DNA of 33,072 bases from Sulfurimonas sp. (lineage in GTDB: Bacteria; Campylobacterota; Campylobacteria; Campylobacterales; Sulfurimonadaceae): the NCBI GenBank assembly GCA_026988235.1, contig JALSLQ010000059.1, forward strand, positions 1 through 33,072. The letters are read 5' to 3'. Made by a program: the position numbers and the translations under genes. The notes beneath the pieces are model-generated. The model searched no databases. It was not told the DNA's origin and saw only the letters and a list, made by a program, of their open reading frames with translations. This document shows positions 969 to 31,495 of this stretch, piece after piece; within the stretch, counting starts at the first letter, position 1, and each line of letters starts with the position of its first letter.

Positions 969-2057
969 TTAAAAAAAAGTCTCTTTATCAAGTAAAAGCA
1001 ACATTTTTATTGCCATTAAGGCACTTTGGTCTTGCACATAGTTTCTGTCACCATGAAAATGCAAATGTTTTTCTACATGTAAAGTGTGACTTCTTGCACT
1101 TATGTAGACTGTTCCTACCGGTTTAAGTTCTGTCCCTCCAGTGTCACCGGCTATTCCGCTTATGGCAAGCGCATAATCTGCTCCGCTCACATTTAATGCA
1201 CCTTCACTCATTTCTCTCACAACTTCAGCACTTACTGCACCATTTTCTTCAAGTATACCATGATCAACTGCCAACCAATTTTCTTTTAAAGTATTTGAAT
1301 ATGTCACTAAACTACCATCTAGAATTTTCGATGCTCCGTTATGTTTAGTAAAATAATAACTCAACAATCCACCCGTACAACTCTCTGCAAAACTTACTTT
1401 TTTAGAACCATGTGAAAGCTTTTCTATAATGTATTCTATAATATTAGAGGAAGCTATAAGCTTTTTGGGCAACAGATTTTTTGAGGCATGAATAAACTTA
1501 GCAATATCTCCGTACTTATTACTAGTTACATCAATTCTAAGCCAGCCTTCTACTTCTTGCGTCACATCAAAGTTCACTTCATAAGTTTGTGCAATGGGCA
1601 TTAAAATAGTTATAATCGTAGATTTATCTTCTTCAAATACATGGACAGTCGCCCGTATCTCTTCATTTTTCAACAACAATTCTGGCATTTTTTGCCCTTC
1701 ATCCATCTGCACGACATTTATAACAGAGTCCTGATATTCTAAAAGATACGAACGCTCTGCAAACAAAGAAGCTTTTTGCGGTATAAGCATTCCCTCTTTT
1801 AAAATCTGATTATCACTCGTAGCCGTGCATATCACTTTTCCTACAGTTGAAAAGTTTTGTTTACATGTAACTAGAAGAAGTCGTTCGGAGCTGTTTAATT
1901 CTTGTTCAAGATAAAGAAAAAATGAGTTGTCACTGTCTTTAAAAGTGGTTATTTGGTCGATAAATCCGCTATTTTTTTCAATATTTCGTAAAATATACTC
2001 TTTTAATTGTCTATTGTAAACAAATTTATTGCCTATAAATATAAGATGCGTTTTCAT
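969..2057 (-). CDS. CinA C-terminal-family protein (nicotinamide-nucleotide amidohydrolase-like)
   Basis: C-terminal half VSFAESCTGGLLSYYFT...ALAISGIAGDTGGTELKPVGTVYI is characteristic of CinA; N-terminal half divergent. Confidence 0.85.
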   Translation of the reverse strand: MKTHLIFIGNKFVYNRQLKEYILRNIEKNSGFIDQITTFKDSDNSFFLYLEQELNSSERLLLVTCKQNFSTVGKVICTATSDNQILKEGMLIPQKASLFAERSYLLEYQDSVINVVQMDEGQKMPELLLKNEEIRATVHVFEEDKSTIITILMPIAQTYEVNFDVTQEVEGWLRIDVTSNKYGDIAKFIHASKNLLPKKLIASSNIIEYIIEKLSHGSKKVSFAESCTGGLLSYYFTKHNGASKILDGSLVTYSNTLKENWLAVDHGILEENGAVSAEVVREMSEGALNVSGADYALAISGIAGDTGGTELKPVGTVYISARSHTLHVEKHLHFHGDRNYVQDQSALMAIKMLLLLDKETFF

Positions 2058-2132
2058 ACTACATGTAACCTTATTTGAAGAATTTAATTTGGCTTATTAT
2101 AACACTTTATTAGCTTTTAAACACATAACAGA

Positions 2133-2138
2133 TATAAT
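2133..2138 (+). promoter_or_regulatory. putative -10 box (TATAAT) upstream of ileS
   Basis: TATAAT about 32 nt before the ileS ATG; no clear -35. Confidence 0.4.
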
Positions 2139-2169
2139 GCAACAATTATAATAATATTTTGGGGTACAA

Positions 2170-4938
2170 ATGGACTACAAAGACACACTACTTTTACCGA
2201 CAACAACATTTGCCATGCGAGGCAATTTAATAAACAACGAGCCTAAGCGTTATGCTGCATGGGATGAGAAAAAAGTTTATCATAAAATGAAGGCAAAGCG
2301 TGCTGGAGCCGAACATTTCACACTTCATGACGGTCCTCCATATGCGAACGGGCATATTCATATAGGACATGCGCTCAATAAAATTCTCAAAGATATTATC
2401 ATTAAAAACAATTATTTTAATGGGAAATCTGTTCGTTTTACTCCAGGTTGGGATTGTCATGGGCTTCCAATCGAGCAACAGGTTGAAAAAAAGCTTGGCG
2501 GAAAAAAGAAAAAAGAACAGTTAGAGACTGCCCAAATTCGTAAGCTTTGTCGAGAACACGCAGCAAAATTTGTAGATATTCAAAGAGATGAATTTAAAAC
2601 GCTTGGAATTATTGCCGATTGGGAAAAACCGTATGTGACTATGGATTACAAATTTGAAGCAAATATTTTTAGAACACTGTGTAGTGTTGCAAAAAAAGGG
2701 CTTTTGATTGAGCGTAGCAAACCTGTGTTTTGGTCATGGGCTGAGAGAACCGCACTCGCAGAAGCGGAAGTTGAATATGAGGACAAAGAAGACTACTCTA
2801 TTTTCGTTGCTTTTGAGCTTGATGATGCCTCAAAAGAAAAGCTCGGACTTGCCAAAGAAACAAAAGCGGCGCCTGTTATCTGGACGACAACACCATGGAC
2901 TATTCCGGCGAACACCGGTATTTCTTTGAATCCTGAAGAAGAATATGTCCTGACAACAGACGGTTATATTGTCGCAAAAAAACTCTTTAACACTTTAGTT
3001 GATGACGGTATAGTTAGTGGAACTGTCGCAAAAACCTTTGATGCAACTGCATTTGAAAATTTAAACGCGCTTAATCCACTTAATGGCAGACCTTCTCGTA
3101 TGGTTTTAGGTGAGCATGTTTTAGTCGATAACGGGACGGGATGTGTACATACTGCTCCCGGGCATGGTGAAGATGATTACCGTGTCGGTTTAAAATATGA
3201 CTTGGAAGTTGTTATGCCAGTTGACGAGACCGGATGTTATGACACTACAATTGTGCGTGATGCTTTAATTCCAAATGCAGAGGATTTTGTCGGACGTCAC
3301 ATCTTTAAATCAAATGAAGATATAGTGGAGTTACTGGGTGAAAGCGTGTTACATGTAAGTAAGTTTATGCACTCATATCCACACTGCTGGAGAAGTCATA
3401 CACCGCTGATTTATCGTGCAACAAAGCAGTGGTTTATTGCAGTCGATGAAAAACCAAAAGGGCAAGATGAAACACTGAGAAATATTGCCCTTGATGAGAT
3501 AGAAAAAACACTTTTCGTACCGCAAACCGGAAAAAATCGCTTAACTTCTATGGTAGCAAACCGACCTGACTGGTGTATTTCTCGTCAGCGTGACTGGGGT
3601 GTGCCTATCGCATTTTTTCGAGTCAAAGAAACCGGTGAAGTTTTACTTGATGAAAAAGTGCTTAACTTTACGGCAATGATTTTTGAAATGCAGGGAAGCG
3701 ATGCTTGGTACTCTATGGACATAGCACAGCTTCTCTACCCAGGAAGCGGTTACAAAGCAGAAGAGCTTGAAAAAGTAACAGATATCTTAGATGTCTGGTT
3801 TGACTCAGGTTCTACTTGGAATTCAGTACTGAAATCCCGTAATTATGATGCCGGAGATTATCCTGCTGACTTGTATGTAGAAGGATCTGACCAACATCGC
3901 GGCTGGTTCCAGTCATCTCTGTTTTTATCATCCGCAGTTGAGCATAAAGCACCTTACAAAGGTGTGCTAACTCACGGTTTCACAGTGGATGAAAAAGGTG
4001 AGAAAATGTCTAAGTCAAAAGGCAATGTTATCGCCCCTGAGAAAGTTTTAAAAGAGTATGGCAGTGAAATCCTTCGTTTATGGGTGGCATCATCCGATTA
4101 TCAAGGTGATTTGAAAATTTCTCAAGGAATTTTAAAACAGACTTCTGAAAACTATAGAAAACTACGAAATACCTTTAGAATTATGCTTGCAAACATCAAT
4201 GATTTAGAGAGTCTGACACCGTATGCAGAGATGGGTGATTTGGATCAATGGATATTACATGTAACACAAACCACATTGGATGAAGTACATAAACAGTTTA
4301 GCGAATATAACTTTGTAAACGGTATGAGTACGCTCAACAACTTCATTGTCAATGAACTCAGCGGTATGTATATAGATATGACAAAAGACAACCTTTATTG
4401 TAACGCAAAAGAGAGCCAAAGAAGACGAGCAAGCCAAAGTGCCATGGCAATCATTACAAAAACACTGCTTTTAATTATGGCTCCTATCATTACTTATACT
4501 GCTGATGAAATTGTAGAAAATGCACCTGCCATCATCAAAGGTGATGCCGAAGATATTTTTGATATGACTTATGAAAAAATTGAACCCGTTACCGTGCCTT
4601 TTGATGCAGAGTATATGGTAAAAGCACGGGAAGGCTTCGGCGCAGAAGTTGATAAACTCAAAAAAGAAAAAATTATCAAAAATACACTCGAACTTGTCAT
4701 TTATACAGAATCTAAAACAACATTAGAGATGGACAGAGTCGATGCTGAAGACTGGTTTGTCGTTTCAGGTATACTTGAAGACAAACCTGAAGAAGAAATC
4801 ATCGGAAGTTTCAAAGTCGATGAGGATACTTTCTCCATTGCAAAAGCAAGTAAATATAAATGTCCTAGATGTTGGAAATACCAAGCTGAAACAGAGGATT
4901 GTCTTTGTACCAGATGCGAGAGTGTTATAAATGCCTGA
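2170..4938 (+). CDS. ileS: isoleucyl-tRNA synthetase
   Basis: HIGH-type motif (GHIHIGHALNKILKD), KMSKS (EKMSKSKGNV), C-terminal zinc motif CPRCWKYQ...CTRC. Confidence 0.97.
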   Translation: MDYKDTLLLPTTTFAMRGNLINNEPKRYAAWDEKKVYHKMKAKRAGAEHFTLHDGPPYANGHIHIGHALNKILKDIIIKNNYFNGKSVRFTPGWDCHGLPIEQQVEKKLGGKKKKEQLETAQIRKLCREHAAKFVDIQRDEFKTLGIIADWEKPYVTMDYKFEANIFRTLCSVAKKGLLIERSKPVFWSWAERTALAEAEVEYEDKEDYSIFVAFELDDASKEKLGLAKETKAAPVIWTTTPWTIPANTGISLNPEEEYVLTTDGYIVAKKLFNTLVDDGIVSGTVAKTFDATAFENLNALNPLNGRPSRMVLGEHVLVDNGTGCVHTAPGHGEDDYRVGLKYDLEVVMPVDETGCYDTTIVRDALIPNAEDFVGRHIFKSNEDIVELLGESVLHVSKFMHSYPHCWRSHTPLIYRATKQWFIAVDEKPKGQDETLRNIALDEIEKTLFVPQTGKNRLTSMVANRPDWCISRQRDWGVPIAFFRVKETGEVLLDEKVLNFTAMIFEMQGSDAWYSMDIAQLLYPGSGYKAEELEKVTDILDVWFDSGSTWNSVLKSRNYDAGDYPADLYVEGSDQHRGWFQSSLFLSSAVEHKAPYKGVLTHGFTVDEKGEKMSKSKGNVIAPEKVLKEYGSEILRLWVASSDYQGDLKISQGILKQTSENYRKLRNTFRIMLANINDLESLTPYAEMGDLDQWILHVTQTTLDEVHKQFSEYNFVNGMSTLNNFIVNELSGMYIDMTKDNLYCNAKESQRRRASQSAMAIITKTLLLIMAPIITYTADEIVENAPAIIKGDAEDIFDMTYEKIEPVTVPFDAEYMVKAREGFGAEVDKLKKEKIIKNTLELVIYTESKTTLEMDRVDAEDWFVVSGILEDKPEEEIIGSFKVDEDTFSIAKASKYKCPRCWKYQAETEDCLCTRCESVINA

Positions 4939-5050
4939 TTTTTCACACCCTGTTACTGCTCTATTTATCGGAATGACTATCGCTATGATATTTATAGTTA
5001 TTGGAATTGGGATTGCACTTGTTAAAATTGGCAAAAAGTCTAAAAAATAA
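4931..5050 (+). CDS. 39-aa single-TM small membrane protein, overlaps end of ileS
   Basis: ATG overlaps ileS stop region; MPDFSHPVTALFIGMTIAMIFIVIGIGIALVKIGKKSKK*, a hydrophobic helix followed by a basic tail; below the cutoff of the supplied ORF track. Confidence 0.65.
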   Translation: MPDFSHPVTALFIGMTIAMIFIVIGIGIALVKIGKKSKK

Positions 5051-5088
5051 TTTATCTTTTTAATAAGTGCCTGACCAGAATAAAAAGG

Positions 5089-5121
5089 GTACTCTACATT
5101 TAAGAAAATGTAAAAAAGTAC
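5089..5121. promoter_or_regulatory. nested inverted repeat upstream of the methyltransferase operon
   Basis: GTAC-TC-TACATTT-AAGA-AAATGTA-AAAAA-GTAC, perfect 7-bp core arms. Confidence 0.4.
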
Positions 5122-5139
5122 AATACAAGGAAATATATA

Positions 5140-6204
5140 TTGCGAGTATTAGATTTATTTTCAGGTTGTGGTGGCTTTTCATATGGATTTCAAGAAGCAG
5201 GATTTGAAATTGTTTTAGGTATAGACAATGTTGATATTGCGTTAAAAACATTCAAGTATAATCATAATAATTCTCATACAAAAAATATTGATTTATCAAA
5301 AATAGACAATTTACAGGAAATCGTAAACTTTTTAGACAACAAAGGTGGAGTAGATGTAATCATCGCGGGACCACCTTGCCAAGGCTTCTCACTTACTGGT
5401 TCGAGAAAAGAGGACGATGAAAGGAATAAACTTTTTTACTCTGTTTTTGAAATTGCACAAATGTTAAAAGAAAGACCAAAAGCATTAATTATAGAGAATG
5501 TTCCTGGTCTAGCAACACTTTACAAAGGAAAAGCAAAAGAAGAAATTGAAAGAAACTTCAAAGAAAATAACTACACAAATCAATCTAAAATTCTCTTTGC
5601 TCCCAATTATGGTATTCCACAAATTAGAAAAAGACTATTTTTTGTAGGTTTAGATGCACCTTATGGTAACTTTAAATTTCCTGATGAAATTTTAAACAAA
5701 GATGAATATATAACTTGCGAACAAGCAATTTCTGACTTGCCTTCATTAAAAAATACTCTAGGGGATGAAAATATAGATTATATTTGTAAACCAACTTCAG
5801 ACTATCAAATAAAAATGAGATTAAATTCAAAAAAAATAAACAACCATGTAGGAACACAGCATACAGACTTGGTAAAAAGTGTAATTGCACAAGTTCCTGA
5901 AGGTGGAAATCACAAAGATTTACCAATGGGTGTAGGTGATAGCAGGAAATTTAATGAAGCTTGGACTAGATATCACAGTCAAAAACCTGCTAAAACTATT
6001 GATACAGGACATAGAAACCATTTTCATTATAAATATAATAGAGTACCTACTGTAAGAGAGAATGCAAGACTACAAAGTTTTCCAGATAGTTTTCAATTTT
6101 TAGGAACAAAAACCCAACAATATAGACAGGTTGGGAATGCTGTTCCCCCGATGCTTGGTTTCCATATAGCAAAACAACTAAAAAAGATTTTAGAAAATGA
6201 ATAA
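5140..6204 (+). CDS. DNA (cytosine-5)-methyltransferase 1 (Dcm family)
   Basis: Motifs LDLFSGCGGFS, GPPCQGFS, ENV, QIRKRLFFVG, RENARLQSFPD, QVGNAVPP; TTG start with upstream AAGGA. Confidence 0.93.
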   Translation: MRVLDLFSGCGGFSYGFQEAGFEIVLGIDNVDIALKTFKYNHNNSHTKNIDLSKIDNLQEIVNFLDNKGGVDVIIAGPPCQGFSLTGSRKEDDERNKLFYSVFEIAQMLKERPKALIIENVPGLATLYKGKAKEEIERNFKENNYTNQSKILFAPNYGIPQIRKRLFFVGLDAPYGNFKFPDEILNKDEYITCEQAISDLPSLKNTLGDENIDYICKPTSDYQIKMRLNSKKINNHVGTQHTDLVKSVIAQVPEGGNHKDLPMGVGDSRKFNEAWTRYHSQKPAKTIDTGHRNHFHYKYNRVPTVRENARLQSFPDSFQFLGTKTQQYRQVGNAVPPMLGFHIAKQLKKILENE

Positions 6205-7435
6205 ATATAGCTATATAGATTTATTTGCTGGTTGTGGTGGTCTAACCGATGGTTTTGAACAAACAAATATGTTTAAACCTTATGCTTTTGTTGAATGGGA
6301 TAAAAATGCAAGTAATACATTGAGAAATAGACTTGCTACTAAATGGAAGATTGATTCAGTTGATAAGAAAGTCATGCATTTCGATATTCAAAGAATGGAT
6401 GAATTACTTAATGGTTACAAAGATGATAGTGAATTTGGAAGTCATTGTGGACTTAAAAAGCTAGTTGGCAATGCAAATATAGATGTCATAATTGGCGGTC
6501 CACCATGTCAGGCATACTCAATTGCAGGTAGAGTTCAAGATAAGAATAATATGCAGTGTGATTATAGAAACTATCTATTTGAAAGTTATTTAAAAGTAGT
6601 TCAAGAGTTTCAACCAAAGCTTTTTGTATTTGAAAATGTACAAGGAATATTAAGTGCGAAACCCGATGGTACATATATTATTGACAAAATTATTGAAGAT
6701 TTTGACAAAGCAGGATATGTTATTTCTAAAGAACTAAAAAAAATGGCTTTACTTGATTCTTCTGATTATGGAGTTCCCCAAATAAGAAAAAGATTAATTA
6801 TTATTGGTATTAAGAAAAATGCGACTACTACAAATCCTACTAATATTTTACATGATTTTTATAATAATATTTTACAAAATCATAAAGTTAAGACTAAAAT
6901 TACTGTTAAAGATGCAATATCTGATTTAGACCCCTTATACCCTTTATCTAGTAAAGAACAAATAAATAGAAAAATGTCACATTCAAAAGGTTCTATAATA
7001 AAAAACCATATTCCTAGGTTCCATAGTCAAAGAGATATTGAAATATTTCGTGAACTAGCTTTAGATGTAGCTAATGGATCAAAAAAATATCCTGATACGG
7101 AATCATTAAAAAAATTATATTATGAAAAAACTGGCAAAAAATCATCATTTCATAAATATAATGTATTAGCTTTTGATAGACAAAGTAATACTATCCCTGC
7201 TCATTTGCATAAAGATGGGTTAAGACATATTCATCCAGATTATATGCAAGGAAGAACTATAACTCCTCGTGAGGCTGCAAGACTACAAACATTTGATGAT
7301 GATTTTGAATTTTTAGGCAGCATGGGTGCATCTTATAAAATGATAGGTAATGCTGTCCCTCCTTTATTGGCACAAAAAGTTGCTTTATCTATTGATTATC
7401 TATTGGAAAAATATTTTATTAAAAAGAGAGAATAA
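6197..7435 (+). CDS. DNA (cytosine-5)-methyltransferase 2 (Dcm family)
   Basis: Motifs IDLFAGCGGL, GGPPCQAYS, FENV, VPQIRKRL, REAARLQTF, MIGNAVPP; start overlaps the previous stop by 8 bp. Confidence 0.93.
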   Translation: MNKYSYIDLFAGCGGLTDGFEQTNMFKPYAFVEWDKNASNTLRNRLATKWKIDSVDKKVMHFDIQRMDELLNGYKDDSEFGSHCGLKKLVGNANIDVIIGGPPCQAYSIAGRVQDKNNMQCDYRNYLFESYLKVVQEFQPKLFVFENVQGILSAKPDGTYIIDKIIEDFDKAGYVISKELKKMALLDSSDYGVPQIRKRLIIIGIKKNATTTNPTNILHDFYNNILQNHKVKTKITVKDAISDLDPLYPLSSKEQINRKMSHSKGSIIKNHIPRFHSQRDIEIFRELALDVANGSKKYPDTESLKKLYYEKTGKKSSFHKYNVLAFDRQSNTIPAHLHKDGLRHIHPDYMQGRTITPREAARLQTFDDDFEFLGSMGASYKMIGNAVPPLLAQKVALSIDYLLEKYFIKKRE

Positions 7436-7436
7436 T

Positions 7437-8474
7437 ATGCAAGTTAATCAAGTATATATTCATAAGTGCTATGCAAATGAATTAGGATATAGGTCAGGTA
7501 TACCAAAAAAAGCGGGGAGATTTCTGTTTATAAATAAAGAAACAGCATCATTTTTTCCTCATTTAAGTAAACTAGAATTAAATGATAATGTCTTAATAAA
7601 TATAGTTGATCAATCTAATAAAATTGTAGTGAGTAACTATGTTTATCATAATAGCAAAACTGCAACTAATAATCAAAAAGAAACTAGAGATGAATATAGA
7701 CTATATATTCCAAGTGTAATAGATAAAGATAAAAATTTATTTCAACCAGATGACATTCTCACTTTTAGTAAATATAACATTTCAGATGAAATTTTTTATA
7801 AACTTCATCTTTTTTCTAAGCATGATAATTCTATTCAATATCAATATCTTCTTTCACTACTCCATGATGCAAAAAAAAGAGTGAAGGAAGTTAATCACTT
7901 ATTAGTTAAATTAAATACTTTGAAATTTTTAAAAAAAGATCTTGATATTGCTTCAGAAGAAAAAATTCTTCCGACCGAAACAATAGAGATAATGCTAAAA
8001 AATCAACAAAATAATTTTGACAACCTTGAACAGATTGCGAAAGAAGATAAAAAAGTTCCAAAAGATGAAACAGGATTAATTAAAAGTAATAATTTTAGAG
8101 ATATAGTGTTGTTTGCTTACATGGGGAAATGTGCCATAACCAGAGAATCAATCACATATAATACATTATCAAATTTAGAAGCTGCTCACATCATGCCTCA
8201 ATCACATAATGGACCAGATGCTATTCCAAATGGTATGGCTTTAAGTAGAGATTTACATTGGGCATTTGATAAAGGATTCTTTACTATTGAATATAGCTCT
8301 GGTGACTATACAGTAAATGTACATGAAAATGTAAAACAAAATAAAATTATGAAAAGAATAGATGGTCAAAAAATTTTTACTCCTAGTGATCCAAGATTTA
8401 GACTTCATATAAACGCATTGAGTTATCATAAAAAATATATTTTTGGAACATTTAAGCAAATAAGATCTAAATAG
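7437..8474 (+). CDS. HNH-family restriction endonuclease (345 aa from ATG 7437)
   Basis: C-terminal GKCAITRE...LEAAHIMPQSHNGPDAIPNGMALSRDLHWAFDKGFFTI, typical HNH nuclease; ATG one nt after the MTase 2 stop, so the 7350 start in the track is unlikely. Confidence 0.85.
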   Translation: MQVNQVYIHKCYANELGYRSGIPKKAGRFLFINKETASFFPHLSKLELNDNVLINIVDQSNKIVVSNYVYHNSKTATNNQKETRDEYRLYIPSVIDKDKNLFQPDDILTFSKYNISDEIFYKLHLFSKHDNSIQYQYLLSLLHDAKKRVKEVNHLLVKLNTLKFLKKDLDIASEEKILPTETIEIMLKNQQNNFDNLEQIAKEDKKVPKDETGLIKSNNFRDIVLFAYMGKCAITRESITYNTLSNLEAAHIMPQSHNGPDAIPNGMALSRDLHWAFDKGFFTIEYSSGDYTVNVHENVKQNKIMKRIDGQKIFTPSDPRFRLHINALSYHKKYIFGTFKQIRSK

Positions 8475-8571
8475 ACTTGTTTATTGCAATTAATGAAAAT
8501 AACAAAATATTAAGAATGTGGACACATTGGGAAGGGCAATATTATAAAAGAAAAGAATAAACACATTTCGC

Positions 8572-8577
8572 TATAAT
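8572..8577 (+). promoter_or_regulatory. putative -10 box (TATAAT) upstream of gatA
   Basis: TATAAT 33 nt before the likely gatA start. Confidence 0.45.
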
Positions 8578-8609
8578 ACAACTAATATTTTATGAAGATA
8601 GGAACAGTA

Positions 8610-9950: not shown

Positions 9951-10001
9951 TGTAATGCTTATGAGATAATTTTTCGTTACTATTTTAAAAAAGGAATAAA
10001 C

Positions 10002-10412
10002 ATGGCATATTTTGATAATGTAAAAGTAAAAGATAAACTCTACGGTTTGGTATTTGGTGCAGGGAAAGTTTCTCAGGTATTTGAAAATTCTCATTACAAA
10101 ATGATGGTAAAATTCAAAAACGGACATGAAGTTCCTTATACTGAAGATGGTATACCAGGATGGGGAAATTTTAAAAAGCAGACTATTTTTTATAAAAATG
10201 ATATAGACTTAACGGATGTTGACTTTGCACCTGTTACAAAAGTATTGTCTCCTAAAAAAATTATTAAGTTACGCGAAAAGAAAAAACTTGAAGTAAGACT
10301 ACCTTCTGGCGTCTGGACAAACTGTACAAAATGTATCAAAGGCTATATAGAAGATATGCTTGAAGCTGAGAATTATCATCTTTTTAGAAAATCACCAAAA
10401 AAGGATAAGTAA
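10002..10412 (+). CDS. conserved hypothetical, SH3/KOW-like N-terminal domain
   Basis: Good SD (AAGGA) and ATG; N-terminus VKDKLYGLVFGAGKVSQVFENSHYKMMVKFKNGHEVPY resembles small beta-barrel domains. Confidence 0.7.
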   Translation: MAYFDNVKVKDKLYGLVFGAGKVSQVFENSHYKMMVKFKNGHEVPYTEDGIPGWGNFKKQTIFYKNDIDLTDVDFAPVTKVLSPKKIIKLREKKKLEVRLPSGVWTNCTKCIKGYIEDMLEAENYHLFRKSPKKDK

Positions 10413-12367: not shown

Positions 12368-12868
12368 ATGAATGAAGTAAGATATGCAGGATTTTGGATT
12401 CGTTTTATAGCTTCATTTTTAGATACTCTTTTTCTCGCTCTACCAGTTGCGCTTGTCATTTACTTTGTAAGTGATGGGAATTGGTTTGATTTCGCACAAT
12501 ATCAACAAAATATACAAATGGCAATGAGTGGAAATACTCATGCCCTTGATACACAGCCGCAAACTTCATTTAGATGGGAATTAGTTTTTGAGATGTCAGT
12601 TTTAATTGTTACTGTCATATTTTGGGATAAATGGCGAGGTGCAACGCCCGGAAAAAAATTTGTACATGTAAAGATTGTAGATGCAAAAACATTGCATGAT
12701 ATTACAAATAAACAAGCAATTACACGCTCTTTAGCATATATACCCTCTCTTTTACTCTTTGGCATAGGGTTTTTAATGGTTGCTTTTAGAAAAGACAAAA
12801 GAGGTTTACACGATTTACTGGCTTCTACAGTTGTAATTTATGATGAAGAAACTAATCCTCAGTCATAA
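12368..12868 (+). CDS. RDD-family membrane protein
   Basis: YAGFWIRFIASFLDTLFL...KWRGATPGKKFVHVKIVD...FRKDKRGLHDLLASTVV. Confidence 0.9.
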   Translation: MNEVRYAGFWIRFIASFLDTLFLALPVALVIYFVSDGNWFDFAQYQQNIQMAMSGNTHALDTQPQTSFRWELVFEMSVLIVTVIFWDKWRGATPGKKFVHVKIVDAKTLHDITNKQAITRSLAYIPSLLLFGIGFLMVAFRKDKRGLHDLLASTVVIYDEETNPQS

Positions 12869-13601
12869 AAAAACTATCAACAGATATATTTTTAAAAGCC
12901 GCGTTCAGTGAAGTAAAAAGTCCGGGGAACTCTTTCTCCATTTTTGCAAGCATCTCTTTTGTGCTTTGTCTTGCATGTGGCATTTTTACATCAAAACGCA
13001 TAGCAGGACACGCTTCATCACCTATAGCTTCAATGTTGTTTTCTTCCACAAAAGCACGCAATTGTCGTTCGCGCATTTGAATAAGAGGACGAATAACAAT
13101 CAAACCATTTTGTGCTGTATATTTAGGGGCTAAACTTCTCATTTGTCCATTATAAATAAAGTTCATAAAAAAACTCTCAGCCGCATCATCCATATGATGA
13201 CCAAGTGCCACCTTATTGCATCCGAGTTCTTGTGCGACACTGTAAAGATACCCGCGTCGCATACGAGAAAAGAAACTGCAAAATGATGAATTTTTACGAA
13301 TTTTTTCTTTTGCCAACTCGTATGTTTGCGTATCTTTAATAATATGTTTTATTCCATGTTCCATGCAATGTGCTGCAAGTTTATCAAAGTTTTCACCCAT
13401 ACCGTAGCCAATCGTCACGGCAATAAATTCAAAATCAAAAGGTGCTCGACGCTGCTGTTCTTTCATAGCATGAATCATAGTTAAAGAATCTTTTCCACCA
13501 CTCAGTCCAACAAGAATTTTATCACCCTCTTGTATTAATGTAAACTCGGCATTTGTTTTGCCAAGTCTTGACATAATTTTTTTAGAAAGTTTAACGGACA
13601 A
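12852..13601 (-). CDS. TtcA-like PP-loop ATPase (tRNA thiolation family)
   Basis: GLSGGKDSLTMIHAM, CSFFSRMRRGYLY, ALGHHMDDAAESFFMNF. Confidence 0.85.
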   Translation of the reverse strand: MSVKLSKKIMSRLGKTNAEFTLIQEGDKILVGLSGGKDSLTMIHAMKEQQRRAPFDFEFIAVTIGYGMGENFDKLAAHCMEHGIKHIIKDTQTYELAKEKIRKNSSFCSFFSRMRRGYLYSVAQELGCNKVALGHHMDDAAESFFMNFIYNGQMRSLAPKYTAQNGLIVIRPLIQMRERQLRAFVEENNIEAIGDEACPAMRFDVKMPHARQSTKEMLAKMEKEFPGLFTSLNAAFKNISVDSFFMTED

Positions 13602-14283
13602 TCTTATCTACCATTTTCATAACAAATTCAGCAGATTCTACTGCACTTGTCTCCAAAAATTCATCAAAAGAGAAACTTGCATCCATATCTGCTGCATCAC
13701 TGATAGCACGCAGTATAAAAAATGGTACATGTAACGCATCACAAACTACGGCGACACTTGCACCTTCCATTTCCAGTGCATCCGCATGAAATATTTCACC
13801 AATCCAGTTTTTACGCTCTTCATCTGCTACAAACTGATCACCAGTGGCAATAATACCTTCTTGAACTGATTTCCCCATCTCTAGTGCAACCTCTTTTGAA
13901 AGTGCAAGTAATTCTTTGTCTGCTTCAACATATATGGAACCCTCAGGAACATAACCAAACGGATGCCCAAAAGCCGTAATATCTAAGTCATGCTGTGCAA
14001 GTTTTGTCGCTACAATCAAATCACCTACTTTAAGTTTTGGTGATATTGCTCCGGCAACACCTGAAAATAAAAGTTTTGTTGCACCGAAATGTTCACACAT
14101 AGTAGTCGCTGTCAATGTTGAGAATACTTTACCTATTTTTGAATAGGCAATGACTAATTGAATACCTTTATAGTTTGCTTCATAGTAGGTATTGCCTGCA
14201 TATTTTGTTGTCTTATATTCACCGAGCTTTTCTAAAATCGGTGCAATTTCTTCAGGCATTGCACCCATAATTGCTAATGTCAT
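13591..14283 (-). CDS. mtnN: 5'-methylthioadenosine/S-adenosylhomocysteine nucleosidase (or 6-amino-6-deoxyfutalosine hydrolase)
   Basis: IGAMPEEIAPIL, FSGVAGAI, DALEMEGASVAVVC, RAISDAAD. Confidence 0.92.
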   Translation of the reverse strand: MTLAIMGAMPEEIAPILEKLGEYKTTKYAGNTYYEANYKGIQLVIAYSKIGKVFSTLTATTMCEHFGATKLLFSGVAGAISPKLKVGDLIVATKLAQHDLDITAFGHPFGYVPEGSIYVEADKELLALSKEVALEMGKSVQEGIIATGDQFVADEERKNWIGEIFHADALEMEGASVAVVCDALHVPFFILRAISDAADMDASFSFDEFLETSAVESAEFVMKMVDKIVR

Positions 14284-14285
14284 AT

Positions 14286-15008
14286 TTATTCCTCTATTGT
14301 AAATGTTTGTATATCTTGTTTAAAAAGTGGCAGCTTGTGAGTTATATTTCCACTACTATTTACAACGCAGCTTCCACCCCAAAACCCAAGTCCATCTTCA
14401 AACCCTACTCGGTTCACAAAAAGAAGTTGTGCACTACATTCTTTTGCTACATCAGTAATAATTTTATACCATTTGTTTTGTATATCTAAAGTTTTTTCAT
14501 TAAATCCACGCGCCGGAGATGCTACTAAAACAATAATCAAATCGGGGTTGAGTGTTATAAGCTCTTGATGTACACTTTTATGCCATAAATCCTCACAAAC
14601 TAGCATAGAAATTTTTTGAGAGCTTGCAACAAATGATTCAAATTTATCTCCGCCTTCAAAGTAACGGGCTTCCTCAAACATACCATAGTTTGGTAGATGC
14701 ACTTTTATATGCTTGCAGACAAGTTTACCTTTGCTATAGTAAAGCCCGGCATTTCTAAACACACCTCCATCCTGTAAAGCAGCGCCAACAACTATGTCAA
14801 TTTTTTCACTCAAACTCTCGAAGATTTTCAACTCATTAAGCAACCATGCATCTTCAAATAATTTATCTTGTAATAAATATCCACTGAGTGCAAGCTCAGG
14901 AAACACAATCAAATCAGAATTTACTTGCACATCTTGGATACATGTAACAACATCATCAAGATTTGAACGATCTAACTTCGGTGAAGTTTGAGCAAGTGTT
15001 ACTCTCAT
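14286..15008 (-). CDS. carbon-nitrogen hydrolase family protein
   Basis: VFPELALSGY, KVHLPNYGMFEEARYF, VCEDLWH. Confidence 0.88.
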   Translation of the reverse strand: MRVTLAQTSPKLDRSNLDDVVTCIQDVQVNSDLIVFPELALSGYLLQDKLFEDAWLLNELKIFESLSEKIDIVVGAALQDGGVFRNAGLYYSKGKLVCKHIKVHLPNYGMFEEARYFEGGDKFESFVASSQKISMLVCEDLWHKSVHQELITLNPDLIIVLVASPARGFNEKTLDIQNKWYKIITDVAKECSAQLLFVNRVGFEDGLGFWGGSCVVNSSGNITHKLPLFKQDIQTFTIEE

Positions 15009-22163: not shown

Positions 22164-24460
<2,297 letters not shown>

Positions 24461-24469
24461 AAATATCCC

Positions 24470-25987
24470 TTAGTTAGCTATGAAGCTAGCTTTGAACTCT
24501 TCTAATGCTTTTATCAATAATGCTCTCGTTTCATCATCTAGTTTCTTGGAACTTCTGATATTCTCAAAAATTTGAGGATAAGATGCTTCAATAAATGGAT
24601 ACATTTCAGCTTCGAAACGCACAATATTAGATGGAGCAAAATCATCCAAGAAACCTTCATTACCTGCAAAGATAATTGCGACTTGCTTTTCAGCAGAAAG
24701 AGGTGAAAATGGTCCCTGTTTTAAAACTTCAACCATTCTTTGACCACGCTCAAGTTGATTACGAGAAACTTCATCAAGATCAGATGCAAACTGAGCAAAT
24801 GCTTGTAATTCACGATACTGTGCAAGATCAAGTCTCAATGTACCGGCAACTTGTTTTGTTGCTTTAATTTGTGCAGCACCACCAACACGAGAAACAGAAA
24901 GTCCAACATTAATCGCAGGACGAACACCTGAGTTAAAAAGGTCAGTTTCTAGGAAAATTTGACCATCTGTGATTGAGATAACATTTGTCGGAATGTATGC
25001 CGCAACATCACCTGCTTGTGTTTCAATAATAGGAAGAGCCGTTAAAGAACCCGCTCCCTCTTCATCAGAGAGTTTTGCAGCACGCTCTAATAGTCTTGAG
25101 TGAACATAAAATACATCACCAGGATATGCCTCACGACCTGGAGGACGACGAAGAATAAGTGACATTTCGCGGTAAGCAACTGCATGCTTTGATAAATCAT
25201 CATATACAATCAAACCATGTCTTGCATTATCACGGAAATATTCTCCCATAGTAACACCAGTATATGGAGCTAAAAACTGTAATGCAGCAGCTTCAGCGGC
25301 AGTTGCTGAAACAATAATTGTATATTCCATTGCTCCATGATCTTCTAAACGGCGAACGATTTGTGCAATAGTTGATTCTTTTTGACCAATAGCCACATAA
25401 ATACATACAACACCATTACCCTTTTGGTTGATAATTGCATCGAGAGCAACTGTAGTCTTACCAGTTTGTCTATCACCAATAATAAGCTCACGCTGTCCAC
25501 GACCAATTGGTACCAACGCATCAATTGCTTTAATACCAGTTGCTAATGGCTCATGAACAGATTTTCTTTCCATGATTCCCGGTGCTTTTTCTTCTACAAA
25601 ACGAGTCTCTGTAGTCTCAATAGGACCTTTCCCGTCAATCGGCTCACCAAGTGCATTTACAACACGACCAAGAAGTGCATCACCCACAGGAACTTTAAGA
25701 AGTGTTCCAAGGCGCTTCACACTCATACCTTCACGAAGAGCATCCCCCGCACCAAGGATAACAACACCTACACTACTTTCTTCAAGGTTCATTACTAAAC
25801 CTCTCGTTCCATCTTCGAACTCTACCATTTCTCCTGCCATAACATTGCTTAGTCCGTAAACCTTTGCAACACCATCTGCATAAGAAACAATTTTACCTGT
25901 TTCATTGATATCAACACTTAGTTCAAAGTTGTCGATACGCTCTTTAATTATTGAGCTGATTTCATCAGCTTGAATTTTTGCTACCAC
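24470..25987 (-). CDS. atpA: F1 ATP synthase alpha subunit
   Basis: [36 protein letters not shown]. Confidence 0.98.
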
Positions 25988-26010
25988 TATTGTTCTCCTC
26001 TCATTGAAAG

Positions 26011-26544
26011 TTAAATTGCTTTTATTATATGTTCTATAATTTGACTGTCTATTCTGTCTTTAGAGAAATTAATCTCAATTCCCAGACCTTCTACTTCTAC
26101 TTTTAACCCGTTAAAGTCATTCTTTATAAATACCAACGAAATAGTCGCATCATATTTTTTACTTAAACCGGCACTTAATTCTTCTATTACCTTTGCTTCG
26201 ATATCAGTGTCACTGCAGATAATACCTTCATAAGTTTTCGTAGCTATTGCCAAATCATTTTTCAATTCTTGTGCAATTGCAGGAATAATATTAATACGTC
26301 TATTTTCTACTAATAGCTTAATGAGATTATTTATTTTATGAGAATCTACACTTTTTACAGCATCTAATAATAGATTTGATTTTTCTTCAGCTTTTATACT
26401 CGGATTAGCAATTATACTAACAAATTTTTCATTTTGAAATGATTCTGCCAAGACAGAAAACAATGTTGTTATATCTTGCATAGATGCTAAATCAGTACCC
26501 TCATTAAAAGCCTTTATATATCTTTTTGCAATTAGTTCTTCCAT
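26011..26544 (-). CDS. atpH: F1 ATP synthase delta subunit
   Basis: [11 protein letters not shown], operon position, OSCP-like length. Confidence 0.9.
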
Positions 26545-27057
26545 TTAAGCAACCTTTTTCAAAATGATATTTGCCATAGTTTCTCTGTCAAAACTATCAT
26601 TGCTTTGTTTCAATGTCTCTTTTATAACATCTTCAACGACATTACGAATCATTTTCTTCTCTTCAAATTCTTTTGTAGAAACATGTTTTTTTATCATGGA
26701 TTCAATATCATTCTCTGCTTGTGCAATAATATTGTCATTCAAAATTTTGTTCTCTTTTTTAGAAATAACTGCCAATTCTTCTGCAAACTTTTCAGCTTCA
26801 GAAATTTTTGCCAATGCCTCTTTTTTAAGATTGATTGATTCATTTAATTTTTCCTGAACCTTTTTCAATTCATCAGAAATACCCTGACTTCTTGATGCAA
26901 AGAAATTCTTTACAGGTTCCCCAACTAGATACCATACAAGCCCAGCAAATAACAAGAAGTTCACAGTTCTTTGAACTATATCTGTGCCTGCATGCTCGTG
27001 CTCAGATGCTAATGCATAAGTTGATATCATTAGCATTAATACTAAAATTCTCCTCAC
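26545..27057 (-). CDS. atpF: F0 ATP synthase subunit b
   Basis: Signal/TM then coiled coil, operon position. Confidence 0.88.
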   Translation of the reverse strand: MRRILVLMLMISTYALASEHEHAGTDIVQRTVNFLLFAGLVWYLVGEPVKNFFASRSQGISDELKKVQEKLNESINLKKEALAKISEAEKFAEELAVISKKENKILNDNIIAQAENDIESMIKKHVSTKEFEEKKMIRNVVEDVIKETLKQSNDSFDRETMANIILKKVA

Positions 27058-27066
27058 ATTACACCC

Positions 27067-27489
27067 TTATATCTGACTAAATTTAGCTTTTACAGCTTCT
27101 TTAAATACCGGAACTTGTGACATTAAGTCAGAAGTCAACTCATCTTTAGATTTTGCAAGTGATTGCTCAAACTCTAAATATTCTGCCGCGAGTTCAGCAT
27201 GTTTTGTTTCTAACTTACTGTCAGCTAATTCCTTAGCATCCGCGATAACTTTTTCTCTTAGGGCCGCAGCTTCTAGTTTAGCACTCATAATTATTGACTC
27301 TGCTTTTGCTTTAAGCTCATTGATTTCACTATCATTAGATCCTACTTTTGCAAGATCTTTTTTAATGTCATCATCACGCTTTTGCATAAAAGAAAGTAAT
27401 GGATTATAAAGCCAACTATTTAGAACGGCTATAAGGGAAACAAATACAACAAATGTAGCCAAGAGTAGTACCCAATTTATATCTAACAT
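27067..27489 (-). CDS. F0 ATP synthase subunit b'
   Basis: N-terminal TM helix, LYNPLLSFMQKRDDDIKKDL; second b-type subunit. Confidence 0.85.
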   Translation of the reverse strand: MLDINWVLLLATFVVFVSLIAVLNSWLYNPLLSFMQKRDDDIKKDLAKVGSNDSEINELKAKAESIIMSAKLEAAALREKVIADAKELADSKLETKHAELAAEYLEFEQSLAKSKDELTSDLMSQVPVFKEAVKAKFSQI

Positions 27490-27573
27490 AGCACCTCCTA
27501 AAAGTTGCGTGATTATACTATGATAAAATTGAAAGGATAGTTAAATTAAGGTATAAATTTGTTATTTTTTAAA

Positions 27574-28422
27574 TTAATTTCTAAAATGTGACAGAAATTC
27601 ATCAATTTCATCTTGTGAATCAAAATTGATTGTTATTTTATTATTTGTAGCTTTTACATGTAAGCCTAATGTAATAAATCTTTGTTTCAATTTTAAGAAA
27701 TCATATGTTGGAGATTTTTCTTCTGCACTAATTACTGGAACGCTTTGTTTATTTTTCATATTTTTAATTATTGTCTCAACATCTCTCACGCTTAACTTTT
27801 GACCAATTATAGAGTTTAAAATCAATTGTTGATTTTTATCATCTAATCCTACCATTACTTTTGCATGACCAGCAGAAATCTTTTTTTCAAGCAAGGCTTT
27901 TTGTGTTTTTGAAGAAAGTTGCAACAGTCGTAAAGTATTTGTTATATGTGTTCTGCTTTTATGAATAATATTTGAGAGTTCATCATGTGTTATCTCATGA
28001 ATTTTAATGAGTTCGCTATATGCTGTAGCAAGCTCAACAGCATTTAACTCTTCTCTTTGAATATTTTCAATCAGAGCGAACTGTCGCATTTTTTCTTCAT
28101 CTGAATTTAAAACGATAGCTCGTATTTCTTTGAGTTTTGCAAGTTTTGATGCACGGAATCTTCTTTCACCTGCTATGAGTACATAACCGTCGATATCTTC
28201 ACTCACCACTATTGGCTGAAGTAAACCATCATTTTTAATAGATTCTGCAAGTTCTAGTAGTGATTCTTCATCAAAAGATTTTCTCGGTTGAAAAGGATTA
28301 GGACGGATATCTTTGAGTGGTATATTTAATATAGCATCACGCTGAGAGCCTTCATTCTCATACGCTTCATCCATTTCACCCAAGAGTGCATCTAATCCTC
28401 TGCCTAACTTTTGTGACTTCAT
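27574..28422 (-). CDS. parB: chromosome partitioning protein ParB
   Basis: LGRGLDALLGE, RPNPFQPRK, GERRFRASKLA, ENIQREELNAVE. Confidence 0.96.
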   Translation of the reverse strand: MKSQKLGRGLDALLGEMDEAYENEGSQRDAILNIPLKDIRPNPFQPRKSFDEESLLELAESIKNDGLLQPIVVSEDIDGYVLIAGERRFRASKLAKLKEIRAIVLNSDEEKMRQFALIENIQREELNAVELATAYSELIKIHEITHDELSNIIHKSRTHITNTLRLLQLSSKTQKALLEKKISAGHAKVMVGLDDKNQQLILNSIIGQKLSVRDVETIIKNMKNKQSVPVISAEEKSPTYDFLKLKQRFITLGLHVKATNNKITINFDSQDEIDEFLSHFRN

Positions 28423-29204
28423 TATTTTATTATTGCCTGTGCTAAATTTTGATATGCGATTGAACCGCTTGATTTTACATCATATAAAATTGCTGGTTTT
28501 CCAAAGGAAGGTGATTCCGCCAATTTTACATTACGCGGTACTACAATATATTTGTCTGTCGCATCTTTAAACAGTTTGCCTTTAAAATGCTGACGCAAAT
28601 CTGCAAATACTTGTTTGGACAAATTATTTTGAGAAGAAAACATTGTTGGTAAAAAGCCTTTTACAGCCAGTTTAGGATTAATTGATTTTCTCACCAACTT
28701 TACAGTATTTAAGAGCTGTGCCAAACCTTCAAGTGCAAAAAATTCACACTGAATAGGAATAATAACCGAATTTGCAGCTGAAAGTGCATTTATAGTCATT
28801 GGACCAAGTGCAGGAGGAGAATCTATTATAATATAATCATAATCTTTTTTGATATTTGCAATTGCATTTTTTAATACAAGCTCACGCCCTTTTGCCTTAT
28901 CTGCATCATAATACTCTTTTTCTATACCAACAAGCCCAATGTTTGATGGTGCTAGATGCAGTGTAGGTAAATCTGACTTTAATATGATGTCTTTTAGTTT
29001 TTTCGTTCCAATAAGTACATGATAAATATTAAATTCATAATCATTTCTATGAAAACCCAGTGATGTCGTGGCATTCGCCTGCGGATCTGAGTCAATCAAA
29101 AGCACTTTTTTTTCTGCAACAGCCAGTGAAGCTGCCAAGTTTACAGCAGTAGTAGTTTTACCCACTCCTCCCTTTTGATTTGCAATTACTATTACTTCAC
29201 TCAT
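28422..29204 (-). CDS. parA: chromosome partitioning ATPase ParA/Soj
   Basis: ANQKGGVGKTTTAVNLAASLA, IDSDPQANATTSLG. Confidence 0.97.
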   Translation of the reverse strand: MSEVIVIANQKGGVGKTTTAVNLAASLAVAEKKVLLIDSDPQANATTSLGFHRNDYEFNIYHVLIGTKKLKDIILKSDLPTLHLAPSNIGLVGIEKEYYDADKAKGRELVLKNAIANIKKDYDYIIIDSPPALGPMTINALSAANSVIIPIQCEFFALEGLAQLLNTVKLVRKSINPKLAVKGFLPTMFSSQNNLSKQVFADLRQHFKGKLFKDATDKYIVVPRNVKLAESPSFGKPAILYDVKSSGSIAYQNLAQAIIK

Positions 29205-29854
29205 CGCCTGCTATATATCCTCTCACCATTTATGTTTAAACACCCGTCACTCTCAAGTATCGAAGACTTGAGAGCTATTCTTTTTCCATCACTATGTGTA
29301 AAAAATTCCTTGTTGTTTTCAAATTCTAACTTATATTTGCTAAAAACTTGCTTCCATAAAACTTTTTTTTCTATATTTGTAAAATATTTTTCTATTAAAA
29401 TTTCTCTATTTATTGTTATATCCAGTGGTTCAAAGCCTTTTGGCGCTGTGACAAGATTCAACCCAACACCACAAATGAGCTTGTTGTTAACAATATTTGT
29501 TATCATTCCACCTATTTTTTTATTTTGAATATAAAAATCATTAGGCCATTTTAAAAAAACTTTTGAGCCAAATTCACTCAAAGTTTCTTTTAAAATATAA
29601 GAAAAGTATAGCGATACAGATTCGAGTTTTAAATCATTCGGTAGTTCATGCATATGAAGAGCGAACGATAGAAAAAGATTGCCCTCTTGTGAAGTCCATT
29701 CATTTTCCCGACTGCCTATGCCATCGGTCTGTATATTTGCCACTACTGCCACAGGAGTATCTAATGCTTTGCTCTTAAGTTGCTCTTTTAAATATAGTTG
29801 AGTTGAAGGAAGCGTGTTAAAGTAAAGTATCTTCAAGGCTGAGTCTTTTTCCAT
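29201..29854 (-). CDS. birA: biotin-[acetyl-CoA-carboxylase] ligase
   Basis: LPSTQLYLKEQ, QTDGIGSRENEWTSQEGNLFLSFAL, LKWPNDFYIQNKKIGGMI; start ambiguous. Confidence 0.9.
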   Translation of the reverse strand: MEKDSALKILYFNTLPSTQLYLKEQLKSKALDTPVAVVANIQTDGIGSRENEWTSQEGNLFLSFALHMHELPNDLKLESVSLYFSYILKETLSEFGSKVFLKWPNDFYIQNKKIGGMITNIVNNKLICGVGLNLVTAPKGFEPLDITINREILIEKYFTNIEKKVLWKQVFSKYKLEFENNKEFFTHSDGKRIALKSSILESDGCLNINGERIYSRR

Positions 29855-30731
29855 TTATATAAGAAACAACATCCATCTCTTTTTTTGATTGCGGCTGTAC
29901 TTTGTAAATGCGAAGAGAACCTTGCTTACATGTAACCACTATACTTTTTTTGTCCACAACAATTATTTTTCCGCTATTGTCATGGTGTTCATCGCTGTTT
30001 TCAAGTTGCATCTCTTTTATTTTAAGTCCATTTGAAAGATATACACCCGGCCATGGCGTAAAAGCACGGTATTTATTATAAACAGTAACGGCATCATCAA
30101 AGCGTATCTCACCGTCTGCTTTTGTAATTTTTTTACAATGTGTAGCCTCAGTTTCATTTTGTTGTTTTGAAGTATATGTATAAAAATCATGTAAAACTTC
30201 TACGCTCAATTCTCTTGCAAGAATTGTGAGCGCATCAAACAGCGTTTCAAGCATCATATCATCTGGAACGCTGAGTGTTTTAATTTTTAAAATATCACCA
30301 GTATCTAAGCCTTCTTCCATAAGCATAGCCGTTACACCCGTCGTTTTATTACCATTGAGTAGTGTTTGCTGAATCGGGCTTGCTCCTCTATATTGCGGTA
30401 AAATAGAAGCATGTAAATTAATACATGGGGCATGGTCCAAAATCTTACGCGGTAAAATTTGTCCGTAAGCAGCTACGACTATAAAATCACATGAAATTTT
30501 GAGTAGTTCATTCACTGTTTCTTCATCACGAAGTCTCGTCGGTTGATATATAGGAATATTATATTCTTTAGCCGTCACTTTTACAGGGGGAGGCGTAAGC
30601 ACTTTTTTGCGTCCCACAGGTTTATCAGGTTGTGTATATACTGCTACGACATTTATGTCACCTGTTTCAATCAGTGTTTGAAGAATTTTTTGCGCATAAT
30701 CCGGCGTTCCCATGAAGATAATATCTAACAT
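29817..30731 (-). CDS. fmt: methionyl-tRNA formyltransferase
   Basis: FMGTPDYAQKIL, YTQPDKPVGRKK, INLHASILPQYRGASPIQ. Confidence 0.96.
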   Translation of the reverse strand: MLDIIFMGTPDYAQKILQTLIETGDINVVAVYTQPDKPVGRKKVLTPPPVKVTAKEYNIPIYQPTRLRDEETVNELLKISCDFIVVAAYGQILPRKILDHAPCINLHASILPQYRGASPIQQTLLNGNKTTGVTAMLMEEGLDTGDILKIKTLSVPDDMMLETLFDALTILARELSVEVLHDFYTYTSKQQNETEATHCKKITKADGEIRFDDAVTVYNKYRAFTPWPGVYLSNGLKIKEMQLENSDEHHDNSGKIIVVDKKSIVVTCKQGSLRIYKVQPQSKKEMDVVSYINGKRLSLEDTLL

Positions 30732-31495
30732 TATTCCCCTTTACATGTAAAGAGTGTACCGCCTTTATGGAGACCCTCTAGCATAAAACTTTTGACATCA
30801 CTCAAATCAAAACCACTTGCAAGAAACATTTCTCTATTTGATTTGAGTAAATAATCGGCAGCTTTAAGTTTTGTCACAATTCCGCCTGTTGCAAAAACAT
30901 TGTTTGGTGTCACCTCTTTGTTTAATTCTTGACTATCAATACTACATACTGTTTTAAAAGCTCTTGCCTCAGGATTTTCTCTTGGATCACTTTCATAATA
31001 CGCATCTATATCTGAAAGAATTATTAGCATATCTGCATTTGTATGTTTTGTTATATAAGCTGAGAGTTGGTCATTGTCTCCAAGTTCAAGTTCGTCCGTT
31101 GCTGTGGCATCATTTTCGTTGACAATAGGTAAAACATCGTTATTTAAAAGTGTTTCAACTGTTGCTCGTACACGCTTAATATCATTTTGAGAATTTAAAT
31201 TTGCGGCTGTTACCAATACCTGTGCGGGAAGTATTTCGTATTTTGCAAATTTCTTTGCATATTTATTCATCAAAACTGGTTGTCCTATTGCTGCAAGTGC
31301 TTGTTTATTGGCAATAATATTTCTGTCTAATTTTAATTTTGTATAGCCACCGGCCACTGCACCCGAAGAGACTAAAATCACTTCATGCTTTTTTTTCAAT
31401 CGTGCCAAAAAATCAACAAGTGCTAGCATACGCTTTAGTGCTATTTCTCCATCTTGTGTTAAAACGGCACTACCAACTTTTACTACAACGCGCAT
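30731..31495 (-). CDS. proB: glutamate 5-kinase (short form without PUA domain)
   Basis: VVVKVGSAVLT, VSSGAVAGG, NENDATATDELELGDNDQLSAYI. Confidence 0.95.
   Translation of the reverse strand: MRVVVKVGSAVLTQDGEIALKRMLALVDFLARLKKKHEVILVSSGAVAGGYTKLKLDRNIIANKQALAAIGQPVLMNKYAKKFAKYEILPAQVLVTAANLNSQNDIKRVRATVETLLNNDVLPIVNENDATATDELELGDNDQLSAYITKHTNADMLIILSDIDAYYESDPRENPEARAFKTVCSIDSQELNKEVTPNNVFATGGIVTKLKAADYLLKSNREMFLASGFDLSDVKSFMLEGLHKGGTLFTCKGE

What the first reader, a model, noticed from the sequence alone, without database searches (positions are those of the whole stretch)
1075..30750. Over-represented, orientation-biased octamer ACATGTAA (core of palindrome TTACATGTAA)
By eye I find ACATGTAA 12 times on the + strand: 1075, 1863, 2061, 3351, 4257, 12664, 13727, 14940, 22232, 27656, 29928, 30743. 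Six are the full palindrome TTACATGTAA (1861, 3349, 4255, 27654, 29926, 30741). The other six are non-palindromic and all six read ACATGTAA on +; I found no TTACATGT lacking the trailing AA. Assuming roughly 35% GC, independent bases would give about 1 octamer on this strand and about 0.1 decamers. Occurrences lie in genes of both strands and in several reading frames (LHV/FVHV, VTC, YMS), so a protein motif or codon bias does not explain them. None lies between 4265 and 12663, which covers the R-M island. Polar repeated words elsewhere act as Chi sites, KOPS-like translocation guides or DNA uptake sequences; which, if any, applies here is speculation.
Basis: partly seen in the sequence, partly recalled or inferred. 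Interest (0 to 1): 0.72.

Follow-up and report, generated by a model that had tools for sequence, protein, structure and literature searches.

The report
DNA-uptake-like tag in sulfur-oxidizing bacteria
The genome of this sulfur bacterium is sprinkled with about 400 copies of one ten-letter palindrome, and its relatives carry either the same word or different related words, much as Neisseria and Haemophilus mark their own DNA for uptake, which would be the first such self-tagging system in this phylum.

Summary
The counts are right (12 ACATGTAA, 6 TTACATGTAA), the polarity is not. The element is the palindrome TTACATGTAA with strict core TACATGTA; the window holds 11 members (6 full, 5 with one altered end; 22232 is a chance octamer). 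The whole genome has 400 copies against 2 of a control word, with no strand bias. It is a patchy genome-wide signature in Campylobacterota: 165-400 copies in one Sulfurimonas clade, up to 1,496 in Sulfurospirillum relatives, 1,059 in one other-family genome, 0-10 in most others. It forces protein sequence (Leu-His-Val about 5x over-represented), tolerates no internal variants, collects at gene 3' ends as terminator hairpins, is sparse on a plasmid, and has been lost in some lineages, leaving protein 'fossils'. No tested DNA methyltransferase family is shared by all rich genomes. Relatives without it carry other iterated words around the same CATG core, including the non-palindromic TTGGCATGTGGAA, found in inverted terminator pairs and never in a locus with TTACATGTAA. 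This is the anatomy of DNA-uptake-sequence dialects (Neisseriaceae, Pasteurellaceae), so I favour a self-DNA uptake tag maintained by molecular drive (0.6). The receptor and uptake itself are undemonstrated.

The parts
1861..1870 (.). Full TTACATGTAA, inside the CinA-domain gene (969-2057, - strand), frame xTT ACA TGT AAx
3349..3358 (.). Full TTACATGTAA in ileS, frame TTA CAT GTA A (Leu-His-Val); most relatives have Leu-Lys-Val/Cys here
4255..4264 (.). Full TTACATGTAA in ileS, frame Leu-His-Val; sister species have Leu-Asn-Val
27654..27663 (.). Full TTACATGTAA inside ORF 27574-28422 (-)
29926..29935 (.). Full TTACATGTAA inside ORF 29817-30731 (-)
30741..30750 (.). Full TTACATGTAA at the 3' end of ORF 30731-31495 (-)
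1073..1082 (.). Variant CTACATGTAA (core intact, one outer base changed), coding
2059..2068 (.). Variant CTACATGTAA, intergenic
12662..12671 (.). Variant GTACATGTAA in ORF 12368-12868 (RDD family protein)
13725..13734 (.). Variant GTACATGTAA in ORF 13591-14283 (-)
14938..14947 (.). Variant ATACATGTAA in ORF 14286-15008 (-)

Best explanation
TTACATGTAA works like a DNA uptake sequence: a self tag, repeated hundreds to about 1,500 times, that biases which free DNA a naturally competent Sulfurimonas or Sulfurospirillum cell takes up (or transforms with), and that accumulates by molecular drive because fragments carrying the perfect word are taken up and recombined preferentially. Related lineages have switched to other words ('dialects') around the same CATG core or lost the preference. 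Shown: genome-wide enrichment, strict core, confined footprint made by substitution, amino-acid forcing, 3'-end/terminator placement, low density on a plasmid, lineage-specific gain, loss and dialects, competence genes in every complete genome tested. Inferred: that the force is uptake, and that a pilin-type receptor reads the word.
For: Enrichment 400 vs 2 and the family-wide distribution. Internal one-base variants are not enriched (49 vs 75 expected, pooled) while outermost-base variants are (103 vs 12.4); position-4 variants stay at background in rich genomes. Leu-His-Val 56 vs 11.9, 90 vs 20.9 and 96 vs 19.2 in three rich genomes, nearly all coded TTACATGTA; 9 vs 7.0 and 7 vs 7.9 in two poor ones. 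Excess divergence confined to the 10 bp in syntenic pairs (2.4-3.2 mismatches vs 1.8-2.1 in neighbouring 10-mers). In Sulfurospirillum the density is 4.1/kb between convergent genes, 2.1 tandem, 1.0 divergent, 0.28 coding; pairs fold as strong hairpins (z -6.3 and -8.0). Plasmid 4 sites vs 17.4 expected. Loss with LHV 'fossils' in G192 (17 non-motif LHV vs 9.1). Dialects: TTGGCATGTGGAA, 63 core sites vs 0 control in 80 named loci, never in a locus with TTACATGTAA, with inverted terminator-like pairs; a one-base dialect TTGGCATGTGAA in L141; ATCATGAT in G110. ComEC and T2SSF (pilus platform) occur in all genomes at least 90% complete that were tested. In Neisseriaceae, dialects share a fixed core and act as barriers (PMC3630211); in H. 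influenzae, inverted USS pairs lie at gene ends as terminators (PMC7811141).
Against: A palindromic uptake word is unprecedented as far as I know, and its symmetric, independent flanks suit a dimeric DNA-binding protein. ComEC and T2SSF are also present in motif-poor genomes, so they do not discriminate. No receptor gene with a matching distribution was found. Depletion in accessory genes is weak and was not shown to be significant (0.22 vs 0.28 and 0.06 vs 0.10 per kb). No paper on uptake or competence in these organisms was found in the library searched.
Confidence: 0.6

Rival explanations
1. A highly iterated palindrome of the cyanobacterial HIP1 type, created and kept through an orphan DNA methyltransferase (methylation-directed repair or signalling).
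For: Palindrome, strict centre with free outer bases, patchy alternates: all reported for HIP1 (PMC4390886).
Against: Two complete motif-rich genomes, G011 (397 sites) and G175 (340), have no PF01555, PF02086 or PF00145 methyltransferase. They have PF02384 type I-like enzymes, while rich G163 has PF02086 but only marginal PF02384/PF07669 hits on a 238-aa frame. No one methyltransferase is evident in all. The non-palindromic sister dialect does not fit a HIP.
Confidence: 0.1
2. Binding site for an abundant chromosome-organising or segregation protein; many sites needed per chromosome.
For: Symmetric palindrome with independent flanks; dispersed over the chromosome with near-Poisson counts in two of three genomes.
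Against: Hundreds of sites vanish in close sister species (367 vs 48, about 1,200 vs 49) with no replacement word detected in the samples; dialect switching and 3'-end preference are not expected.
Confidence: 0.17
3. A repair-driven bias (Vsr-like patch repair or mismatch conversion) that turns near-matches into TTACATGTAA; no function for the organism.
For: Internal one-off variants are below expectation in rich samples (49 vs 75).
Against: Position-4 one-offs are at ordinary levels genome-wide; motif loci differ from their orthologues by about three bases on average, which one-step repair would not give; intergenic 3'-end concentration is unexplained.
Confidence: 0.08
4. Chi-like recombination site or KOPS-like polar guide.
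For: Density similar to E. coli Chi (own knowledge).
Against: Palindromic core; no strand bias genome-wide; amino-acid forcing; loss and switching between close species.
Confidence: 0.03

Closest known systems
DNA uptake sequence (DUS) dialects of Neisseriaceae
   Same: 10-12 bp word in hundreds to thousands of copies, both strands, coding and intergenic, dyads, dialects sharing a fixed core, constraint on coding content (PMC3630211, PMC5031613).
   Different: Here the main word is itself a palindrome, in another phylum; no ComP-like receptor identified; uptake untested; copies per Mb about 170-500.
Uptake signal sequence (USS) of Pasteurellaceae (Haemophilus influenzae)
   Same: Two sequence types in one family, A/T-rich flanks, oppositely oriented pairs as terminators (PMC7811141). 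The sister word TTGGCATGTGGAA looks closest to this.
   Different: Unrelated sequence; palindromic main word; far fewer internal variants, by my recollection of the H. influenzae counts.
HIP1 (GCGATCGC) highly iterated palindrome of cyanobacteria
   Same: Iterated palindrome, strict centre, variable ends, alternates in relatives (PMC4390886).
   Different: AT-rich; no shared methyltransferase found; non-palindromic sister words; lower density.

Membership tests
DNA uptake sequence (DUS/USS) | Short word iterated genome-wide far above expectation, both orientations | tested here: met
   400 vs 2 control; strand counts
DNA uptake sequence (DUS/USS) | Occurrence as closely spaced pairs/hairpins at gene 3' ends | tested here: met
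DNA uptake sequence (DUS/USS) | Dialects in related species that share a core | tested here: met
   TTGGCATGTGGAA, TTGGCATGTGAA; ATCATGAT weaker
DNA uptake sequence (DUS/USS) | Competence machinery present | tested here: met
   ComEC and T2SSF in all genomes at least 90% complete that were tested, but also in motif-poor ones
DNA uptake sequence (DUS/USS) | Depleted in accessory/foreign DNA | tested here: inconclusive
   Plasmid P about 1e-4; accessory genes only a weak trend; R-M island gap not significant
DNA uptake sequence (DUS/USS) | Non-palindromic word (a usual property of known examples rather than part of the definition) | tested here: not met
   TTACATGTAA is palindromic with symmetric flanks; the sister word is non-palindromic. 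For this reason I claim 'works like', not proven membership
DNA uptake sequence (DUS/USS) | Word stimulates uptake/transformation through a dedicated receptor | not testable with these tools
   Needs transformation and binding assays
HIP1-type highly iterated palindrome | Palindrome with strict centre and free outer bases | tested here: met
HIP1-type highly iterated palindrome | Methyltransferase reading the word, or part of it, in every genome that has it | tested here: not met
   Tested only as a shared family: G011 and G175 lack PF01555, PF02086 and PF00145; G163 lacks PF01555 and PF00145 and has only marginal PF02384/PF07669 hits. Enzyme specificities themselves were not testable
Chi / KOPS polar sites | Strand bias relative to replication | tested here: not met
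   534:539 overall and balanced half sites; palindromic core. Contigs could not be oriented relative to ori/ter in G000

The most novel reading that the evidence does not exclude
Sulfurimonadaceae, Sulfurospirillaceae and a few other Campylobacterales use uptake-sequence dialects that switch between palindromic and non-palindromic words on a CATG core: a third, independent origin of self-DNA tagging, and the first with a palindromic word.
Probability: 0.5. Interest if true: 0.88.

Novelty: new variant of a known kind. Interest (0 to 1): 0.77.

Why it matters
In the papers read here, uptake-sequence tagging is described in two families only (Neisseriaceae, Pasteurellaceae). A third system with several dialects, in free-living sulfur bacteria, would give many independent switches in which to find receptors and test whether such words arise by drive or by selection. 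It would also affect gene-transfer inference in Campylobacterota, and suggests putting TTACATGTAA into DNA constructs for transforming laboratory Sulfurospirillum. Even if uptake is wrong, a force that rewrites amino acids at hundreds of places and can be lost within a genus needs an explanation.

Tried and rejected
Polar site: rejected on strand counts. Methyltransferase link: five families tested, no common enzyme evident. R-M island avoidance: gap not significant. Competence genes as discriminator: ComEC and T2SSF universal, uninformative. Candidate linked operon in rich G055 and G163 missing from the syntenic stretches of G192 and G209: MoxR-type ATPase, VWA protein and an ArsC-like protein, which I read (own knowledge) as nitrogen-fixation accessory genes, so unrelated. 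Insertion origin: rejected, orthologues differ by substitution, with few gaps. Vsr-like depletion: not seen genome-wide. Sulfuricurvum 'CAGCAGGTGC': a low-complexity repeat mostly in one gene. Viral contigs: 47 stretches contain close pairs, but the top ones look like phage operators. An apparent density peak near the start of G011 came from my choosing stretches around listed sites and was discarded. A prepilin scan next to the pilus platform gene found prepilin-like ORFs only in one G011 locus.
Full report
WHAT IS THERE. The octamer and decamer counts are exact. The host is a fragmented Sulfurimonas genome, G000 (1.805 Mb, 93 contigs, 92.6% complete); its IleS nests among named Sulfurimonas. 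ACATGTAA occurs 534/539 times on the two strands against 39/45 for the reversed control, and TTACATGTAA 400 times against 2. In 334 kb of the genome TTACATGTAA (63 sites, about 1 expected) leads the list of over-represented 10-mers; the core is TACATGTA. One-base variants are enriched only at the outermost base (103 vs 12.4 pooled over three genomes); internal variants are not (49 vs 75). The apparent orientation bias was chance: half sites are 15:15, 21:23 and 12:17 in three genomes. Site 22232 is not a member.

DISTRIBUTION. In 397 Campylobacterota genomes at least 80% complete, plus the nearest 60, the word is abundant in one Sulfurimonas clade (G000 400, G011 397, G175 340, G034 278, G033 165), in a second genus of the family (367, 380, 194), in G398 (354), in most genomes of family f20 (up to 1,496 in genus g20) and in G377 (1,059; family f11, probably Helicobacteraceae, an inference). 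Most others have 0-10. G055 is Sulfurospirillum diekertiae (its plasmid is 100% identical to NZ_CP059996.1), so f20 is Sulfurospirillaceae. An IleS tree makes the rich Sulfurimonas genomes one clade and shows sisters with few copies (G209 48 beside G163 367; G192 49 beside G055 1,220).

WHAT THE FORCE DOES. In genes the word sits mostly in the frame TTA CAT GTA A. Leu-His-Val tripeptides are 4-5 times over-represented in rich genomes (56 vs 11.9; 90 vs 20.9; 96 vs 19.2), nearly all coded by the word, and normal in two poor genomes. At window 3349 in ileS, rich lineages have LHVS where most relatives have LKVS or LKCS; sites arose by substitution, not insertion. In syntenic pairs the excess divergence is confined to the 10 bp (2.4-3.2 mismatches vs 1.8-2.1 in neighbouring 10-mers, flanks at background). 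So something overrides protein sequence, with a sharp footprint.

LOSS. All three sites in the G192 sample are shared with G055; the other G055 sites are altered there. Paired hairpin sites differ by compensating changes (TTGCATGTAA/TTACATGCAA; TTACGTGTAA/TTACACGTAA), so the hairpin was kept while the palindromes were not. Non-motif LHV remains in excess in G192 (17 vs 9.1) and weakly in G209 (13 vs 7.9) but not in G012 or G110. I read these as fossils of a former motif-rich state, so the force can be switched off within a genus.

PLACEMENT. In S. diekertiae intergenic density is 4.1/kb between convergent genes, 2.1 tandem (41 nearer the 3' end, 20 nearer the 5' start), 1.0 divergent, against 0.28/kb in coding DNA. 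The consensus there is CTTTACATGTAAAG, and pairs 13-31 bp apart can fold into strong hairpins. The 39.9 kb plasmid has 4 sites where 17.4 are expected (P about 1e-4). Counts per stretch are close to Poisson in G000 and G055.

DIALECTS. Pooling motif-poor relatives showed other iterated words. In nine Sulfurimonas-type loci the word is TTGGCATGTGGAA: 63 copies of GGCATGTGG in 1.1 Mb of named loci against 0 of the reversed control, in no locus that has TTACATGTAA. It is non-palindromic, occurs on both strands, and forms inverted pairs such as TTGGCATGTGGAAATTTCCACATGCCAA in intergenic gaps. L141 has TTGGCATGTGAA, one base away. G110 (Sulfurospirillaceae, 7 copies of TTACATGTAA) has ATCATGAT at 57 vs 17. 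CTGCGTTT in L098/L102 and CTGCGTGAG in the clade of L100-L107 and L123 are tentative. On an IleS tree the two main words are scattered among relatives with neither, needing about eight changes ('neither' includes short loci where a word could be missed by chance).

INTERPRETATION. Iteration, strict core, A/T flanks, terminator-like pairs, forcing of coding sequence, scarcity on a plasmid, gain and loss between sisters, and dialects on a common core are together the signature of DNA uptake sequences. In Neisseriaceae eight dialects share a CTG core and limit interspecies transformation (PMC3630211). In Haemophilus oppositely oriented close pairs lie at gene ends as terminators (PMC7811141). Papers read here name only Neisseriaceae and Pasteurellaceae (PMC5031613; PMC7811141). 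Competence genes ComEC and T2SSF are in every genome of at least 90% completeness tested, rich or poor: necessary but not discriminating. The palindromic form invites the HIP1 comparison, but no methyltransferase common to all rich genomes is evident among five families, and two complete rich genomes lack three of them entirely; the non-palindromic sister word also argues against it.

LIMITS. No paper found in the held library describes either word as a bacterial genome signature, but most subscription papers are not held.

Noticed in passing
window 5140-8474: Compact R-M module inserted between ileS and gatA: two C5 cytosine methyltransferases and an HNH endonuclease (PF13391, weak similarity to PT-DNA restriction enzymes).
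   Followed up: partly
G000 sample incl. window: GATC (500 vs 1634), ACGT (72 vs 850) and GGCC (104 vs 685) are strongly under-represented, suggesting restriction avoidance.
   Followed up: no
G000 sample (L001-L020, window): A separate repeated word AGTACCGGTTCC / GGAACCGGTACT occurs 16 times in the 334 kb sample against about 0 expected; probably a longer dispersed or tandem repeat.
   Followed up: no
L098, L102; L100-L107, L123: Possible further iterated words CTGCGTTT (16 in 22.8 kb of L098) and CTGCGTGAG in the closest Sulfurimonas relatives of the window.
   Followed up: partly
L141: One-base variant dialect TTGGCATGTGAA, 10 copies in 20.3 kb, including adjacent copies.
   Followed up: partly
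L258, L273, L284 (viral contigs): Arrays of CTTTACATGTAAAG or ATCTTACATGTAAGAT that look like phage repressor operators centred on the same decamer.
   Followed up: no
L233:16993-L234:1013 (G055); L212:4773-10561 (G163): Conserved MoxR ATPase, VWA protein and ArsC-like gene cluster, read as nitrogen-fixation accessory genes, absent from the syntenic stretches of G192 and G209.
   Followed up: partly
G012 sample (L077-L086): Local repeat of GTCATTCTGA / GTCACCCTGA-type units, about 20 copies in one stretch.
   Followed up: no
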